Source: Actinomycetota bacterium
GTDB lineage: Bacteria > Actinomycetota > Thermoleophilia > UBA2241
Direction of reading: 5' to 3'
DNA: 34,871 nt
Assembly (NCBI GenBank): GCA_003157715.1
Contig: PMKK01000261.1
Coordinates: 1-34,871, forward strand
This document shows, in pieces, positions 4,442 through 28,740 of this stretch (its first letter is position 1; each line of letters begins with the position of its first letter). The notes beneath the pieces are model-generated. The model was not told the origin of the DNA, did not search any database, and saw only the letters and a list, made by a program, of their open reading frames with translations. The translations under genes and the position numbers were made by a program.

Positions 4442-5875
4442 GTGACCATCAGAGGGCATCAGCGGGTCTGGGGAGTCGCCGTCGACGTGGTAGCCGCGCT
4501 GGCGAGCTACGAGGCCACCGCCGTGGCATTCTCCTGGCTTCGCGGTCAGCGCTTCGAGCTCACGACTCCGGCGTTCGACTGGGGCGTCGTGCTGGCTCTC
4601 GCGGTCATCCTCTGCGTGTTCGCCTGCAGCGGCCTGTACCTGCTCGAAGTGTGGGTGTCACGACCGCTCCACGTGCTGACACTGGCTCGCGCGACAGCGG
4701 TCGCGCTCCTCATCACGGCCTTCTTCGTGATCACCTTCAGAACGTCGCTCGCCGCCGATTCGCGCCTCTTCATCGACTTCGCCGCGTTCTTCTTCGTGAG
4801 CCTCACCCTGCGGTTGCGGCTCCTCGATCCCTACTACCGCCGTGACGTGCGCGAGCGACCGGGCGGCACCGTCGTCGTCGGCTGGTCGGCCGACAGCGGC
4901 ATCCTCGTGAGCCGCCTCAGGGAGCTGCGCGGCTACGCGCTGGTGCAGACCCTCGAGCCGCTCGACAGACGACGCAACGGCCACGATGCCGAGCCGCGGC
5001 TCGTCGAGGCGATCAGGAGTGTCGAGCCGGCTCCCCGTCAGGTGTTCCTCGACGGCGGCTCGCTCGGCCACAAGGCCACCCTCGACCTCATCCGCGCGGC
5101 TGAAGATCGCGGGGCCGATGTCTACGTCACCGGCCGCCTCGTCAGCCAGCTCGATGCCACCGGCCTGCTCATGCACCTCTTCGAGATGCCCGTCATGCGC
5201 GTGCACCGCGGGCCGCGGAGCGCATCCCAGGGCAGCTCCACCACGAGCCGGCGCGCCTTCGACATAGTGGCCTCCGTGGCGGCGCTGTTCGCCCTGTCGC
5301 CGCTGTATGCGGCCACGGCCATCGCCATCAAGCTCGATTCACCCGGTCCGATCTTCTTCCGCCAGCAGCGCGTGGGCCTTGACGGCCGCACGTTCGAGTT
5401 TCTCAAGTTCCGCTCGATGCGGGTCGGAAACGACTCCGGCGGCCATCAGGAGTACGTTGCCCGGCTCATCGACGGCGAGACCGAAGCGGCCCTGGCCGGC
5501 TCCGACGAGTGGGGGCGGCCGGTGTTCAAGCTGGCCGACGACGAGCGCGTCACGCACGTCGGCCGCTTCCTGCGCAAGTACTCGCTCGACGAGCTGCCGC
5601 AGTTCTGGAACGTCCTCAAGGGCGACATGAGCATCGTGGGGCCGCGGCCGGCTCTGGGCTACGAGGTCGACGCCTACAAGGAGTGGCATCGCCTGCGGCT
5701 GCAGGTGATGCCCGGCGTGAGCGGGCTCTGGCAGATCGCCGGACGCTCGCGCGTGGGCTTCGATGAGATGGTTTTTCAGGACGTCATGTACGGCTTCAAC
5801 CAGGGTCTGCTCACGGACGTGCACATCTGCCTGCGCACCGTCCCCGCGGTGCTCATGAGCCGGGGGGCGGCGTGA
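4442..5875 (+). CDS. Polyprenyl phosphoglycosyltransferase, WbaP/CpsE-like (initiating sugar transferase)
   Basis: Transfers a sugar-1-phosphate from a UDP-sugar to undecaprenyl phosphate, the first membrane step of polysaccharide synthesis. From GTG 4442 it is 477 residues, normal for the family. About four hydrophobic segments occupy 10-125, then a Rossmann-like CoA-binding-type region (GGTVVVGWSADSG, 141-153). A re-entrant/TM helix follows at about 272-297, then the catalytic domain: KLDSPGPIFFRQQRVG (297-312), FLKFRSMR (320-327), LRKYSLDELPQFWNVLKGDM (378-397, including the DE pair), SIVGPRPAL (397-405) and PGVSGLWQIAGRS (424-436). Start choice is uncertain because the frame is open to 4220; the upstream part lacks family similarity. 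Its last bases overlap the next gene as GTGA. Confidence 0.93.
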   Translation: MTIRGHQRVWGVAVDVVAALASYEATAVAFSWLRGQRFELTTPAFDWGVVLALAVILCVFACSGLYLLEVWVSRPLHVLTLARATAVALLITAFFVITFRTSLAADSRLFIDFAAFFFVSLTLRLRLLDPYYRRDVRERPGGTVVVGWSADSGILVSRLRELRGYALVQTLEPLDRRRNGHDAEPRLVEAIRSVEPAPRQVFLDGGSLGHKATLDLIRAAEDRGADVYVTGRLVSQLDATGLLMHLFEMPVMRVHRGPRSASQGSSTTSRRAFDIVASVAALFALSPLYAATAIAIKLDSPGPIFFRQQRVGLDGRTFEFLKFRSMRVGNDSGGHQEYVARLIDGETEAALAGSDEWGRPVFKLADDERVTHVGRFLRKYSLDELPQFWNVLKGDMSIVGPRPALGYEVDAYKEWHRLRLQVMPGVSGLWQIAGRSRVGFDEMVFQDVMYGFNQGLLTDVHICLRTVPAVLMSRGAA

Positions 5876-6939
5876 AGGTCCCCAGCCCCGCCGAGGTGAC
5901 CCCGGCCACAAGCGTGCCCTCCTCGGCGCCGGTGATCGTCGCGCTCGTGGGCTACGGCTACTGGGGCCCCAACCTGCTGCGCAACTACATGGAGCTGCCC
6001 GGGGCCTGGCTGAAGACCGTCTGCGACCAGCGCCCTGAGACCCTCGACAAGCTGGCCGTGCGGTTCCCAAGGATCCAGCGCACCACGCGGTTCTCCGAGG
6101 TGCTGGCCGACCCCGAGATCGACGCCGTGCTCATCGCCACGCCCATCAGCACGCACTACTCACTGGCCAAGGCGGCTCTCGCCGCGGGCAAGCACGTCTT
6201 TGTGGAGAAGCCCATGACGGCCGACCCGACGCAGGCGCGCGAGCTCATCGGGCTCGCCGCGTCCGCCGGGCGCACGCTCATGGTGGGCCACACCTTCGTC
6301 TTCAGCCCGCCGGTGCGCAAGGTCAAGGAGCTGATCGACGCGGGCGAGCTCGGCGACATCTACTACATCACCACCCAGCGAGTGAACCTGGGTCTGCACC
6401 AGAGCGACGTGAGCGTGATCTGGGACCTCGCCCCCCACGACCTCAGCATCCTCTACTACTGGCTCGGCGAGGCCGCGCGCAGCGTCAGCGTCAACGGCCG
6501 GGGATGCATCGTGCCCGCCACTCCCGACGTCGCCTTCATCAACCTCAAGTTCCCCAGTGGTGTCGTGGCGCTGGTCCAGGTCAGCTGGCTGAGTCCCGTG
6601 AAGCTGCGCCGCACGGTGGTCGTGGGCAGCCGCAAGATGCTCATCTACGACGACACAGAGAACGTCGAGAAGGTCAAGATCTTCGACCACGGCGTGGACT
6701 ACAGGGACCCCGGCGACTTCGGCGAGTTCCAGCTCAGCTACCGGACCGGCGACATCCTGGCGCCCAAGATCAGTGCCGTGGAGCCGCTGTACCTCGAAGC
6801 GCAGCACTTCGTGGAGAGCATCGTGACCCACCAGGAACCGGCGGCCAACGGCGAGGTCGGACGCCAGGTCGTGGCCTCGCTGGCCGCCGCCGAAGCATCG
6901 CTCAGCGACGGCGGCCGCGAGGTGTCGATCGACCTGTGA
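5872..6939 (+). CDS. Gfo/Idh/MocA family NAD-dependent oxidoreductase, possible UDP-sugar 3-dehydrogenase (WbpB/WlbA-like)
   Basis: 355 residues. The N-terminal Rossmann fold has VALVGYGYWGPNLLRN (23-38), and the catalytic-lysine motif VEKPMT is at 111-116. RVNLGLHQSDVSVIWDLAPHD is characteristic of the WlbA/WbpB-like group that oxidises C3 of UDP-GlcNAc uronate. In that route the 3-keto sugar is aminated by a DegT enzyme and then acetylated; the acetyltransferase is the very next gene and a DegT aminotransferase lies at 27631. The start GTG overlaps the preceding stop (GTGA), showing translational coupling. Other MocA-family sugar dehydrogenase roles cannot be excluded from sequence alone. 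Confidence 0.9.
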   Translation: MKVPSPAEVTPATSVPSSAPVIVALVGYGYWGPNLLRNYMELPGAWLKTVCDQRPETLDKLAVRFPRIQRTTRFSEVLADPEIDAVLIATPISTHYSLAKAALAAGKHVFVEKPMTADPTQARELIGLAASAGRTLMVGHTFVFSPPVRKVKELIDAGELGDIYYITTQRVNLGLHQSDVSVIWDLAPHDLSILYYWLGEAARSVSVNGRGCIVPATPDVAFINLKFPSGVVALVQVSWLSPVKLRRTVVVGSRKMLIYDDTENVEKVKIFDHGVDYRDPGDFGEFQLSYRTGDILAPKISAVEPLYLEAQHFVESIVTHQEPAANGEVGRQVVASLAAAEASLSDGGREVSIDL

Positions 6940-27630: not shown

Positions 27631-28740
27631 ATGCACGTACCCTTCGTCGACTTACGCGCTCAGGCAGACCGGCTGCATGACGAGCTTTTCGACGTCCTCG
27701 AGTCGGTCACCTCGCGCGCCGCCTACACCCTGGGACCGGACTGCGCCGCCTTCGAGGCGGCCTTTGCCGAGCTCTGCGGCGTGCGCTTCTGCGCCGGCGT
27801 GAGTTCCGGCACCGACGCCCTGCGCCTGGCCTTGCAGGCGGTCGGCGTCGAGCCCGGCGACGAAGTCATCGTCCCGGTCAACACCTTCATCGCCACGGCC
27901 GAGTCCGTGAGCCACGCGGGCGCTACGCCGGTCTTCGTGGACTGCCTTCCAGACACGGCCACCATCGACCCGGCCGCCCTGGAGGCGGCGCTCACGGAGC
28001 GCACCAGGGCCATCGTGCCGGTACACCTCTACGGTCAGCCCGCCGACATGGATGCCGTGCTCGACATCGCGGCGCGCCACGAGCTGCTCGTCGTCGAGGA
28101 TGCCTGCCAGGCGCATGGAGCCACCTACAAGGGGCGGCCGTGCGGCTCCTTCGGCGCGGCGGCCGCCTTCAGCTTCTATCCGGGAAAGAACCTCGGCGCG
28201 CTGGGCGACGGCGGCGCCGTCACCACCGACTCCGCCGCCGTCTTCGAGACGGTCAAGCTGCTGCGCAACCACGGCGAGTATCCCAAGTCGGTGCACGCGA
28301 CCGTCGGCTACTGCAACCGGCTGCACAACCTGCAGGCGGGCTTTCTCTCGGTCAAGCTGCCCTACCTGCCGGCCTGGAACGAGGCTCGGCGGCGCGCCGC
28401 GGCGCGCTACGACGAGCTGCTGGCCGGCCTGCCCGCCGTCACGCCCATCGCCGTGCGCGACGAGGTCGTGGCGGTGCGCCACCTCTACGTCGTCCTCGTC
28501 GAGGGACGGGATGCGCTGCGCGCGCGACTCGATGCCGACGGCATCGCCACCGGCATCCACTACCCCACGCCTCTGCACCTGACGCCGGCCTACGCTCACC
28601 TCGGTCAGGCGCGGGGCGACTTTCCGGTGGCCGAGGCGATGGCCCCGCGCCTGCTCAGCCTGCCGATGTTCCCCGAGCTCGCCGACGAGCAGATCGACTA
28701 CGTCGCCGAGCGGCTGCGCGTCCACCTCACCGCGCGGTAG
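27631..28740 (+). CDS. DegT/DnrJ/EryC1/StrS sugar aminotransferase (WbpE-like candidate)
   Basis: 369-residue PLP-dependent aminotransferase acting on keto sugars. It has the family start VPFVDLRAQ, CAGVSSGTDALRLALQAVGV (54-73), VPVNTFIATAESV (81-93), VVEDACQAHGATYKG (154-168, with the PLP-nitrogen Asp) and the internal aldimine lysine K186 in SFYPGKNLGALGDGG. The C-terminal HYPTPLHLTPAYAHLG is typical of the group. Its amino-sugar product would be the substrate of the WbpD-like acetyltransferase at 6936 and its keto substrate the product of the WbpB-like oxidoreductase at 5872, even though they lie 20 kb away. Strong ribosome binding site GGAGG. Other 3- or 4-amino sugars are possible products. 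Confidence 0.93.
   Translation: MHVPFVDLRAQADRLHDELFDVLESVTSRAAYTLGPDCAAFEAAFAELCGVRFCAGVSSGTDALRLALQAVGVEPGDEVIVPVNTFIATAESVSHAGATPVFVDCLPDTATIDPAALEAALTERTRAIVPVHLYGQPADMDAVLDIAARHELLVVEDACQAHGATYKGRPCGSFGAAAAFSFYPGKNLGALGDGGAVTTDSAAVFETVKLLRNHGEYPKSVHATVGYCNRLHNLQAGFLSVKLPYLPAWNEARRRAAARYDELLAGLPAVTPIAVRDEVVAVRHLYVVLVEGRDALRARLDADGIATGIHYPTPLHLTPAYAHLGQARGDFPVAEAMAPRLLSLPMFPELADEQIDYVAERLRVHLTAR

What the first reader, a model, noticed from the sequence alone, without database searches (positions are those of the whole stretch)
5872..28740. Dispersed gene set for a UDP-ManNAc(3NAc)A-type sugar, with a candidate uronamide synthase
A WbpB-like oxidoreductase (5872), WbpD-like acetyltransferase (6936), WbpE-like DegT aminotransferase (27631) and WbpI-like 2-epimerase (26279) all lie in one cluster. 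In Pseudomonas this set, with the 6-dehydrogenase WbpA, makes UDP-2,3-diacetamido-2,3-dideoxymannuronate. The AsnB-like protein at 19943 has intact glutaminase and PP-loop motifs and sits among sugar genes, like WbpS, so an amidated diacetamido-mannuronic acid in an actinobacterial surface polymer is a testable prediction. The pathway enzymes are split to the two ends of the operon.
Basis: partly seen in the sequence, partly recalled or inferred. Interest (0 to 1): 0.7.

Follow-up and report, generated by a model that had tools for sequence, protein, structure and literature searches.

The report
Two sugar pathways, one polysaccharide cluster
This bacterial gene cluster builds a surface polysaccharide and seems to carry genes for two different rare sugars rather than the single one first proposed, including a candidate for an overlooked family of enzymes that flip the carboxyl group of a sugar acid.

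The parts
4220..5875 (+). WbaP/EPS-type polyprenyl-phosphate sugar-1-phosphate transferase, proposed acceptor of the module A sugar
   Evidence: TIGR03025 310 bits, above its cutoff of 296; within 4 kb of the oxidoreductase homologue in 37 of 80 loci
5872..6939 (+). Module A: Gfo/Idh/MocA sugar 3-dehydrogenase, type 1 (WbaP-linked), not WbpB
   Evidence: Best NCBIfam model UDP-GlcNAc 3-dehydrogenase NF040723, 171 bits, below its cutoff of 450; tree; residues Gln177/Asp185
6936..7607 (+). Module A: hexapeptide sugar N-acetyltransferase
   Evidence: Best solved relative QdtC 111 bits, 3mqg (recalled as WlbB) 71 bits; 76% to the gene beside the oxidoreductase in G070
27631..28740 (+). Module A: DegT-family sugar 3-aminotransferase, displaced to the 3' end
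   Evidence: 2oga (recalled as DesV) 336, QdtB 333, WbpE 261 bits; 63% to the DegT beside the oxidoreductase in G070
19943..21877 (+). Module B: AsnB-like glutamine-dependent amidotransferase, candidate uronamide synthase
   Evidence: TIGR01536 464 bits (cutoff 267), TIGR03108 526 bits (cutoff 817, not met); AsnB within 8 kb of the bi-domain oxidoreductase in 21 of 34 loci
21874..24045 (+). Module B: bi-domain oxidoreductase (Zn-dependent alcohol dehydrogenase + Gfo/Idh/MocA), reaction unknown
   Evidence: PF00107 and PF01408; NCBI name in relatives
24070..25254 (+). Module B: VpsJ-like (alpha/alpha) toroid protein, candidate uronosyl C5-epimerase
25248..26282 (+). Module B: DUF354 protein, candidate glycosyltransferase (GT-B-like fold recalled, not tested)
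   Evidence: PF04007 149 bits; two relatives of the 24070 protein, P0078 and P0100, also carry PF04007
26279..27448 (+). Module B: non-hydrolysing UDP-sugar 2-epimerase, class N (RPNFMK / GDV / TERP), not WbpI
   Evidence: TIGR00236 302 bits, cutoff 210; residue classes
7709..9529 (+). Wzz/tyrosine autokinase chain-length regulator
   Evidence: TIGR01007 141 bits, above its cutoff
9648..11822 (+). Wzm/Wzt-type ABC exporter pair (9648-10556 and 10560-11822)
   Evidence: PF01061, PF00005 and weak Wzt_C under its cutoff
11812..19943 (+). FkbM methyltransferase, Wzy_C/O-antigen-ligase-like protein, one GT2 and four GT4-like glycosyltransferases
   Evidence: Pfam

Best explanation
The cluster makes and exports one heteropolysaccharide from two separate nucleotide-sugar pathways. 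Module A (oxidoreductase, acetyltransferase, DegT, WbaP) oxidises UDP-GlcNAc at C3, aminates and N-acetylates it to UDP-2,3-diacetamido-2,3-dideoxyglucose, which WbaP probably loads onto the lipid carrier. Module B uses the class N 2-epimerase with a WbpA-type 6-dehydrogenase encoded elsewhere to make UDP-ManNAcA, probably by epimerising UDP-GlcNAcA. The DUF354 protein or one of the GT4 enzymes transfers it, the VpsJ-like protein inverts C5 of the transferred residue (D-ManNAcA to L-GulNAcA), and AsnB amidates the carboxyl group. The bi-domain oxidoreductase acts in the same step series, reaction unknown. Shown here: gene content, the subfamily split, residue signatures and linkage. Inferred: every substrate and product.
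For: Module A: DegT-Ox-AT-WbaP side by side in G070 (L224) and close together in G068 (L231). Of 80 nearest oxidoreductase loci, DegT is within 4 kb in 53, AT in 46, WbaP in 37 and a 6-dehydrogenase in 2. In a 98-row tree all six WbpA-linked oxidoreductases fall in a 9-row clade (SH-aLRT 99) apart from the window's 89-row side. That clade has Arg177 and Ser185 in 9 of 9; the other side has Gln177 in 80 of 89 and Asp185 in 89 of 89. Module B: epimerase residue classes track partners. Trp at the 307 site in 10 of 10 loci with Ox, AT or DegT within 8 kb (one, L028, otherwise atypical); WecB class with WecC in 6 of 6; class N with a WbpA-type 6-dehydrogenase in 11 of 34, WecC in 0 of 34, Ox in 0 of 34. 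Seven of the 30 class N enzymes have the Tyr96 of the uronate enzyme (six of them also its Ala18) together with the Arg, and five of these seven lie near a WbpA-type gene. Nearest relative G070:C58 holds epimerase-DUF354-VpsJ-BiOx plus a WbpA-type 6-dehydrogenase on the same contig, 13 kb from BiOx and 18 kb from the epimerase. VpsJ-like relatives lie 4.5-8 kb from 2-epimerase and WecC-type genes in Vibrio sp. and Burkholderia and with AsnB-BiOx-wecC-wecB in Streptomyces. Vibrio VPS contains L-GulNAcA amidated with glycine, and its authors proposed C5 inversion of ManNAcA (PMC3901696, passages). The model resembles cellobiose 2-epimerase, as reported for Agl32, a lipid-linked-glycan C5-epimerase (PMC13308652, introduction and passages).
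Against: No enzyme activity is tested. L001 and L004, close to the window in the oxidoreductase tree, have a Ugd-type 6-dehydrogenase 0.8 and 3.4 kb away, so the module A sugar may be a uronic acid. L112 and L113, which share the window's cluster type, have Arg177 like the WbpA-linked clade, with Asp185. In L060 a type 2 relative (Ox-AT fusion, 39% to the window) lies beside a Trp-class epimerase, so the wider family does serve that pathway. Of the 14 bi-domain-oxidoreductase loci with a 6-dehydrogenase in view, 7 have a Ugd type, 6 WecC and 1 WbpA, so the acid may be GlcA-derived. In Methanosarcina the VpsJ-like gene lies beside a Trp-class epimerase, so its substrate need not be ManNAcA. Thirty of 34 class N epimerases in the survey have no bi-domain oxidoreductase in view and 23 of 34 no 6-dehydrogenase, though some loci are cut short. 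The window's epimerase has Val, not Tyr or Ala, on the C6 side. The 80 loci and the 34 class N places were picked by similarity to the window. 6-dehydrogenase types were assigned by best match to 19 references, most of them unnamed. Agl32 was not compared by sequence, and its authors report few His, Glu or Tyr in the expected site, whereas Tyr and His are invariant here.
Confidence: 0.45

Rival explanations
1. One reading: the four enzymes plus an unlinked WbpA make UDP-ManNAc3NAcA, which AsnB amidates.
For: Epimerase's best solved match is the T. thermophilus UDP-GlcNAc3NAcA epimerase, 274 bits against 266 for 4neq (M. jannaschii, recalled) and 156 for 1f6d (E. coli, recalled). Module A and some module B genes share clusters in L109, L112, L113 and L115.
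Against: Arg at the Trp307 site, Val at the Ala18 and Tyr96 sites; no Ox in view of class N epimerases in 34 of 34 survey loci; oxidoreductase outside the WbpA-linked clade; no match to a wbpA-operon WbpB.
Confidence: 0.12
2. Module A makes UDP-GlcNAc3NAcA (or a 3-acetamido glucuronate) with a 6-dehydrogenase encoded elsewhere, and the epimerase is unrelated to it.
For: Ugd-type 6-dehydrogenase near Ox-AT-DegT in L001 and L004, both near the window in the tree. Arg177 in L112 and L113.
Against: 6-dehydrogenase in view in only 2 of 80 loci; Gln177 and Asp185 in the window instead of the Arg and Ser of the WbpA-linked clade.
Confidence: 0.2
3. AsnB is an ordinary asparagine synthetase or a peptidoglycan mDAP amidotransferase of the LtsA kind that happens to lie here.
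For: It passes the general asparagine synthase cutoff and fails that of the EPS amidotransferase model TIGR03108. Actinobacterial LtsA proteins are of similar size (recalled).
Against: AsnB homologues lie within 8 kb of the bi-domain oxidoreductase in 21 of 34 loci, 12 of them within 100 bp. A solved hydroxyamidotransferase (7ylz, 241 bits) is nearer than asparagine synthetase B 1ct9 (156 bits).
Confidence: 0.1
4. Module A makes a dTDP-3-acetamido-3,6-dideoxyhexose (Qui3NAc or Fuc3NAc).
For: The best solved relatives of the aminotransferase and acetyltransferase include QdtB and QdtC. rfbABCD genes lie near the set in S. meliloti, which I did not assess.
Against: A Gfo/Idh dehydrogenase takes the place of the 3,4-ketoisomerase expected there (recalled); none of the window genes scanned was such an isomerase.
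Confidence: 0.06

Closest known systems
UDP-ManNAc3NAcA (WbpABEDI) pathway of Pseudomonas and Thermus
   Same: Same enzyme superfamilies; C3 oxidation, amination and N-acetylation proposed.
   Different: Oxidoreductase of another clade, epimerase without the Trp signature, no 6-dehydrogenase in the window.
UDP-GlcNAc 3-dehydrogenase family (NF040723; GnnA of lipid A GlcN3N biosynthesis, recalled)
   Same: Best curated model for the window's oxidoreductase; matched by 26 of 26 homologues scanned.
   Different: Far below the equivalog cutoff (171 against 450); has an N-acetyltransferase partner, which the GnnA/GnnB route lacks (recalled).
Vibrio VPS cluster (vpsA-K; polymer with L-GulNAcA-glycine amide)
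   Same: 2-epimerase plus VpsJ-like protein in one polysaccharide cluster (the roles of vpsA and vpsB are recalled); amidated uronic acid predicted.
   Different: Class N epimerase, AsnB and bi-domain oxidoreductase present; V. cholerae VpsJ itself was not compared here, only a Vibrio sp. THAF191d relative (26-29% identity).
Agl32, D-glucuronyl C5-epimerase of Halobacterium salinarum N-glycosylation
   Same: All-helical protein compared by its authors with cellobiose 2-epimerases; haloarchaea hold VpsJ-like relatives.
   Different: Sequence of Agl32 not available to me, so homology is untested; its authors report few His, Glu or Tyr in the site, unlike this family.
Heparinase II/III-family proteins in AsnB/bi-domain-oxidoreductase clusters
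   Same: Lie in the same operon slot as the VpsJ-like protein; toroid proteins acting on uronic acids (recalled).
   Different: Different Pfam family (PF07940) and 528-654 residues in three examples instead of 394.

Membership tests
WbpABEDI UDP-ManNAc3NAcA pathway | WbpB-type 3-dehydrogenase | tested here: not met
   No blastp match to the wbpA/tviB-operon enzymes of L131 and L132; outside the WbpA-linked clade
WbpABEDI UDP-ManNAc3NAcA pathway | WbpI-type 2-epimerase (Trp307, Ala18, Tyr96 of the T. thermophilus enzyme) | tested here: not met
   Arg, Val, Val in the window; Trp in 10 of 10 loci with Ox, AT or DegT within 8 kb (L028, L060, L123, L131, L132, L227, L228, L230, L232, L233)
WbpABEDI UDP-ManNAc3NAcA pathway | C3-aminotransferase of the WbpE class | tested here: inconclusive
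   Matches WbpE at 261 bits but 2oga and QdtB at 336 and 333; no phylogeny made
WbpABEDI UDP-ManNAc3NAcA pathway | UDP-GlcNAc 6-dehydrogenase in the cluster | tested here: not met
   No match to 19 reference 6-dehydrogenases in the window (best E 0.027); rest of the genome not held
UDP-GlcNAc 3-dehydrogenase NF040723 | Score over the equivalog cutoff | tested here: not met
   171 against 450 bits, though best of the NCBIfam models for the window
UDP-GlcNAc 2-epimerase TIGR00236 | Score over cutoff and the Arg that contacts C3-OH | tested here: met
   302 against 210 bits; Arg320
XrtA/PEP-CTERM amidotransferase TIGR03108 | Score over cutoff | tested here: not met
   526 against 817 bits
Glutamine-dependent AsnB-like amidotransferase | N-terminal Cys and PP-loop | tested here: met
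   MCG and SGGLDS in the translation; PF13537 and PF00733
AGE-superfamily-like (alpha/alpha) toroid | Fold | tested here: met
Uronosyl C5-epimerase (Agl32-like) | C5 inversion of a glycan-bound uronic acid | not testable with these tools
   Inferred from gene context and fold only
Agl32 family | Sequence homology to H. salinarum Agl32 | not tested

The most novel reading that the evidence does not exclude
The protein at 24070 belongs to an unrecognised family, spread over actinobacteria, Vibrio, Burkholderia, haloarchaea and Methanosarcina, of C5-epimerases acting on lipid-linked uronic acid residues such as N-acetyl-mannosaminuronic acid (D-ManNAcA to L-GulNAcA). It is interchangeable with heparinase-like proteins next to a bi-domain oxidoreductase and AsnB. 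The class N 2-epimerase is a UDP-GlcNAcA 2-epimerase that gives a second route to UDP-ManNAcA by oxidising first and epimerising second.
Probability: 0.3. Interest if true: 0.7.

Novelty: new variant of a known kind. Interest (0 to 1): 0.5.

Why it matters
If right, it gives a candidate for the enzyme behind L-GulNAcA in Vibrio-type biofilm polysaccharide, whose structure paper leaves the enzyme open (passages seen), and a simple residue test (Trp; Arg with His or Gln; Arg with the class N motif) that predicts which UDP-sugar a 2-epimerase uses. In the annotated plasmid records seen here nearly all such enzymes bear one name, UDP-N-acetylglucosamine 2-epimerase. It also corrects a tempting pathway assignment made from superfamily labels alone.

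Tried and rejected
WbpE Arg229, recalled as a carboxylate contact, is conserved in WbpE, QdtB, 2oga and the window alike, so it does not discriminate. NCBIfam names for AsnB, the acetyltransferase and the aminotransferase did not settle specificity. Solved-structure ranking of the oxidoreductase by profile: 3q2k and 3q2i (recalled as WlbA) rank at 68 and 67 bits behind 7bvj (108 bits), which I recall, from no call, as GnnA (the paper search did not confirm it). The structures recalled as WbpB were not among the 60 rows shown of 101, which is not evidence of absence. No glucuronyl C5-epimerase structure was among the 50 rows; that is inconclusive. Literature: eight searches of the open-access library were answered. 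The phrase UDP-GlcNAcA 2-epimerase occurs in none of the 13 papers that one search found, and no paper held three of the four terms on the bi-domain oxidoreductase cluster. Two papers held VpsJ with Vibrio; I saw one passage of one of them, which assigns no enzyme activity. The tree is a quick maximum-likelihood tree with SH-aLRT only; 30 of 95 inner branches are below 80 and the rooting is by midpoint. Rows dropped: oxidoreductase hits of 850 bases or less, of 150 bits or less, or with stops were left out of the tree. L028, L130 and L223 epimerases fit no class cleanly. The heparinase/VpsJ alternation is weaker than the totals look, because five of the six loci with only the VpsJ-like gene were found through that gene.

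
Full report
What is there. The window is a high-GC (67-73%) polysaccharide cluster. The + strand run 4220-28740 encodes a WbaP-type transferase, oxidoreductase, acetyltransferase, Wzz-kinase, Wzm/Wzt exporter, FkbM methyltransferase, Wzy_C protein, one GT2 and four GT4-like enzymes, AsnB, a bi-domain oxidoreductase, a protein without Pfam match (24070), DUF354, a 2-epimerase and DegT. No genome is held for it.

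The diacetamido set is real but is not the Wbp set. Among the 80 best genome loci for the oxidoreductase (a capped list), DegT lies within 4 kb in 53, the acetyltransferase in 46, WbaP in 37 and a 6-dehydrogenase in 2 (L001 and L004, Ugd-like); 47 of the 80 have more than 4 kb on both sides. In G070 the four homologues lie side by side with identities of 67% (oxidoreductase), 76% (acetyltransferase), 63% (DegT) and 46% (WbaP) (L224). Its best solved relatives are 2oga (recalled as DesV) 336, QdtB 333 and WbpE 261 bits, all C3-aminotransferases as far as I recall.

The oxidoreductase. A wbpA-Gfo/Idh-acyltransferase-DegT-wecB operon in P. frederiksbergensis (L131) has an oxidoreductase that gives no blastp match to the window's at E<1e-5; the Sulfitobacter one (L132) likewise gives none. 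Six relatives from the same class (L227, L228, L232-L235) lie beside a WbpA-type 6-dehydrogenase, four of the six also near a 2-epimerase. In a tree of 98 rows these six, L229, L230 and the L060 Ox-AT fusion form one side of a branch (SH-aLRT 99); the window is on the other side with 88 rows, none WbpA-linked and two Ugd-linked. G068, G090, G137 and G267 hold both types. The WbpA-linked side has Arg177 (9 of 9) and Ser185 (9 of 9). The window's side has Gln177 (80 of 89; seven Arg, one His, one Lys) and Asp185 (89 of 89). Two of the seven Arg rows, L112 and L113, come from clusters like the window's. I read the difference as a carboxylate-binding against a neutral-sugar pocket. That is inference; no structure of this subfamily was examined.

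The epimerase. The paper on the solved UDP-GlcNAc3NAcA 2-epimerase (PMC10622841; outline, introduction and sections 5, 6 and 10 read) states that Trp307 replaces an Arg conserved in all UDP-GlcNAc enzymes, Ala18 a Leu or Met, and Tyr96 a His or Gln. The window has Arg, Val and Val. Across fetched loci three classes appear. Trp is at the 307 site in all ten loci that have Ox, AT or DegT within 8 kb (L028, L060, L123, L131, L132, L227, L228, L230, L232, L233; L028 is otherwise atypical). The WecB class has WecC within 2.5 kb in 6 of 6 (L120, L121, L125, L128, L129, L220). The window's class N has RPN..K, GD[VI] and TER. A phylum survey at E<=1e-90 found 34 places in 33 of 396 genomes. I fetched 30; the other four were already at hand (L205, L208, L213, L215). 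All 30 carry RPN and GD[VI], 29 of 30 TER. A WbpA-type 6-dehydrogenase lies within 7 kb in 10 of 30, and near 1 of the other four (L208): 11 of 34. None of the 34 has a WecC, Ugd or TviB type or the oxidoreductase in view; 1 has DegT and 1 has AT. Seven of the 30 (L242, L245, L246, L257, L258, L259, L262) have Tyr at site 96, six of them also Ala at site 18, together with the Arg; five of these seven have the WbpA-type gene in view. In G070:C58 a WbpA-type enzyme (60% to L131 WbpA over 283 residues, 34-39% to WecC types) is 13 kb from the bi-domain oxidoreductase and 18 kb from the epimerase. My reading is UDP-GlcNAcA as substrate, because the C3-OH contact is kept while the C6 side is changed. 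A plain UDP-GlcNAc 2-epimerase is not excluded.

AsnB and its neighbours. Streptomyces sp. HUAS 15-9: VpsJ-like / asnB, bi-domain oxidoreductase, wecC, WecB/TagA/CpsF transferase, wecB (L125). Streptomyces sp. KN37: asnB, bi-domain oxidoreductase, alginate lyase family (L127). Sphingobium: wecB, wecC, two hypothetical genes, bi-domain oxidoreductase, heparinase II/III (L128). Parabacteroides: bi-domain oxidoreductase, alginate lyase family, wecC, wecB (L129). Thalassospira has the gene near a 2-epimerase but without AsnB, heparinase-like or VpsJ-like neighbours (L130). The two lyase-like proteins scanned (L127 and L128) are PF07940 above cutoff. In 34 bi-domain oxidoreductase places, 16 have only the heparinase-like protein within 8 kb, 6 only the VpsJ-like one, 1 both, 11 neither; 21 have AsnB and 14 a 6-dehydrogenase (7 Ugd, 6 WecC, 1 WbpA type). 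Six of the 34 came in through a VpsJ-like query and one through the oxidoreductase query. Among the 23 found through the phylum search with the bi-domain oxidoreductase itself (26 matches in 396 genomes), 13 have the heparinase-like protein, 1 the VpsJ-like one and 9 neither. Several loci are cut by contig ends.

How the modules fit. Genes of both occur within one 20 kb stretch in L109, L112, L113 and L115; in L112 and L113 DegT lies beside DUF354. They probably serve one polymer: module A gives the first, lipid-loaded sugar and module B an acidic sugar that is modified after transfer. In G070 the two modules are on different contigs (C6 and C58), so they may be separable.

Verdict. The single-pathway reading fails for two of the four enzymes, and the uronamide idea survives with a different sugar.

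Noticed in passing
window 2014-4218: A + strand ORF whose later part looks by eye like a secreted glycoside-hydrolase-like protein; the ORF has no Pfam match.
   Followed up: no
L060 14750-16300 region: Oxidoreductase and acetyltransferase fused in one 589-residue ORF beside a Trp-class epimerase and DegT, in a locus that also holds the WbaP-linked set: two diacetamido-sugar pathways side by side.
   Followed up: partly
L260, L263, L265: Class N epimerase with TERRIT motif lies 29-34 bp from a WbaP-type transferase in three genomes.
   Followed up: no
L126 (Methanosarcina barkeri plasmid) 12895-16343: DUF354, Trp-class epimerase and VpsJ-like gene side by side, with asnB about 9 kb away: possible C5 inversion of a diacetamido uronic acid in an archaeon.
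   Followed up: partly
window 28844-31039 (-): TMEM260-like protein O-mannosyltransferase homologue (PF11028) convergent with the cluster end.
   Followed up: no
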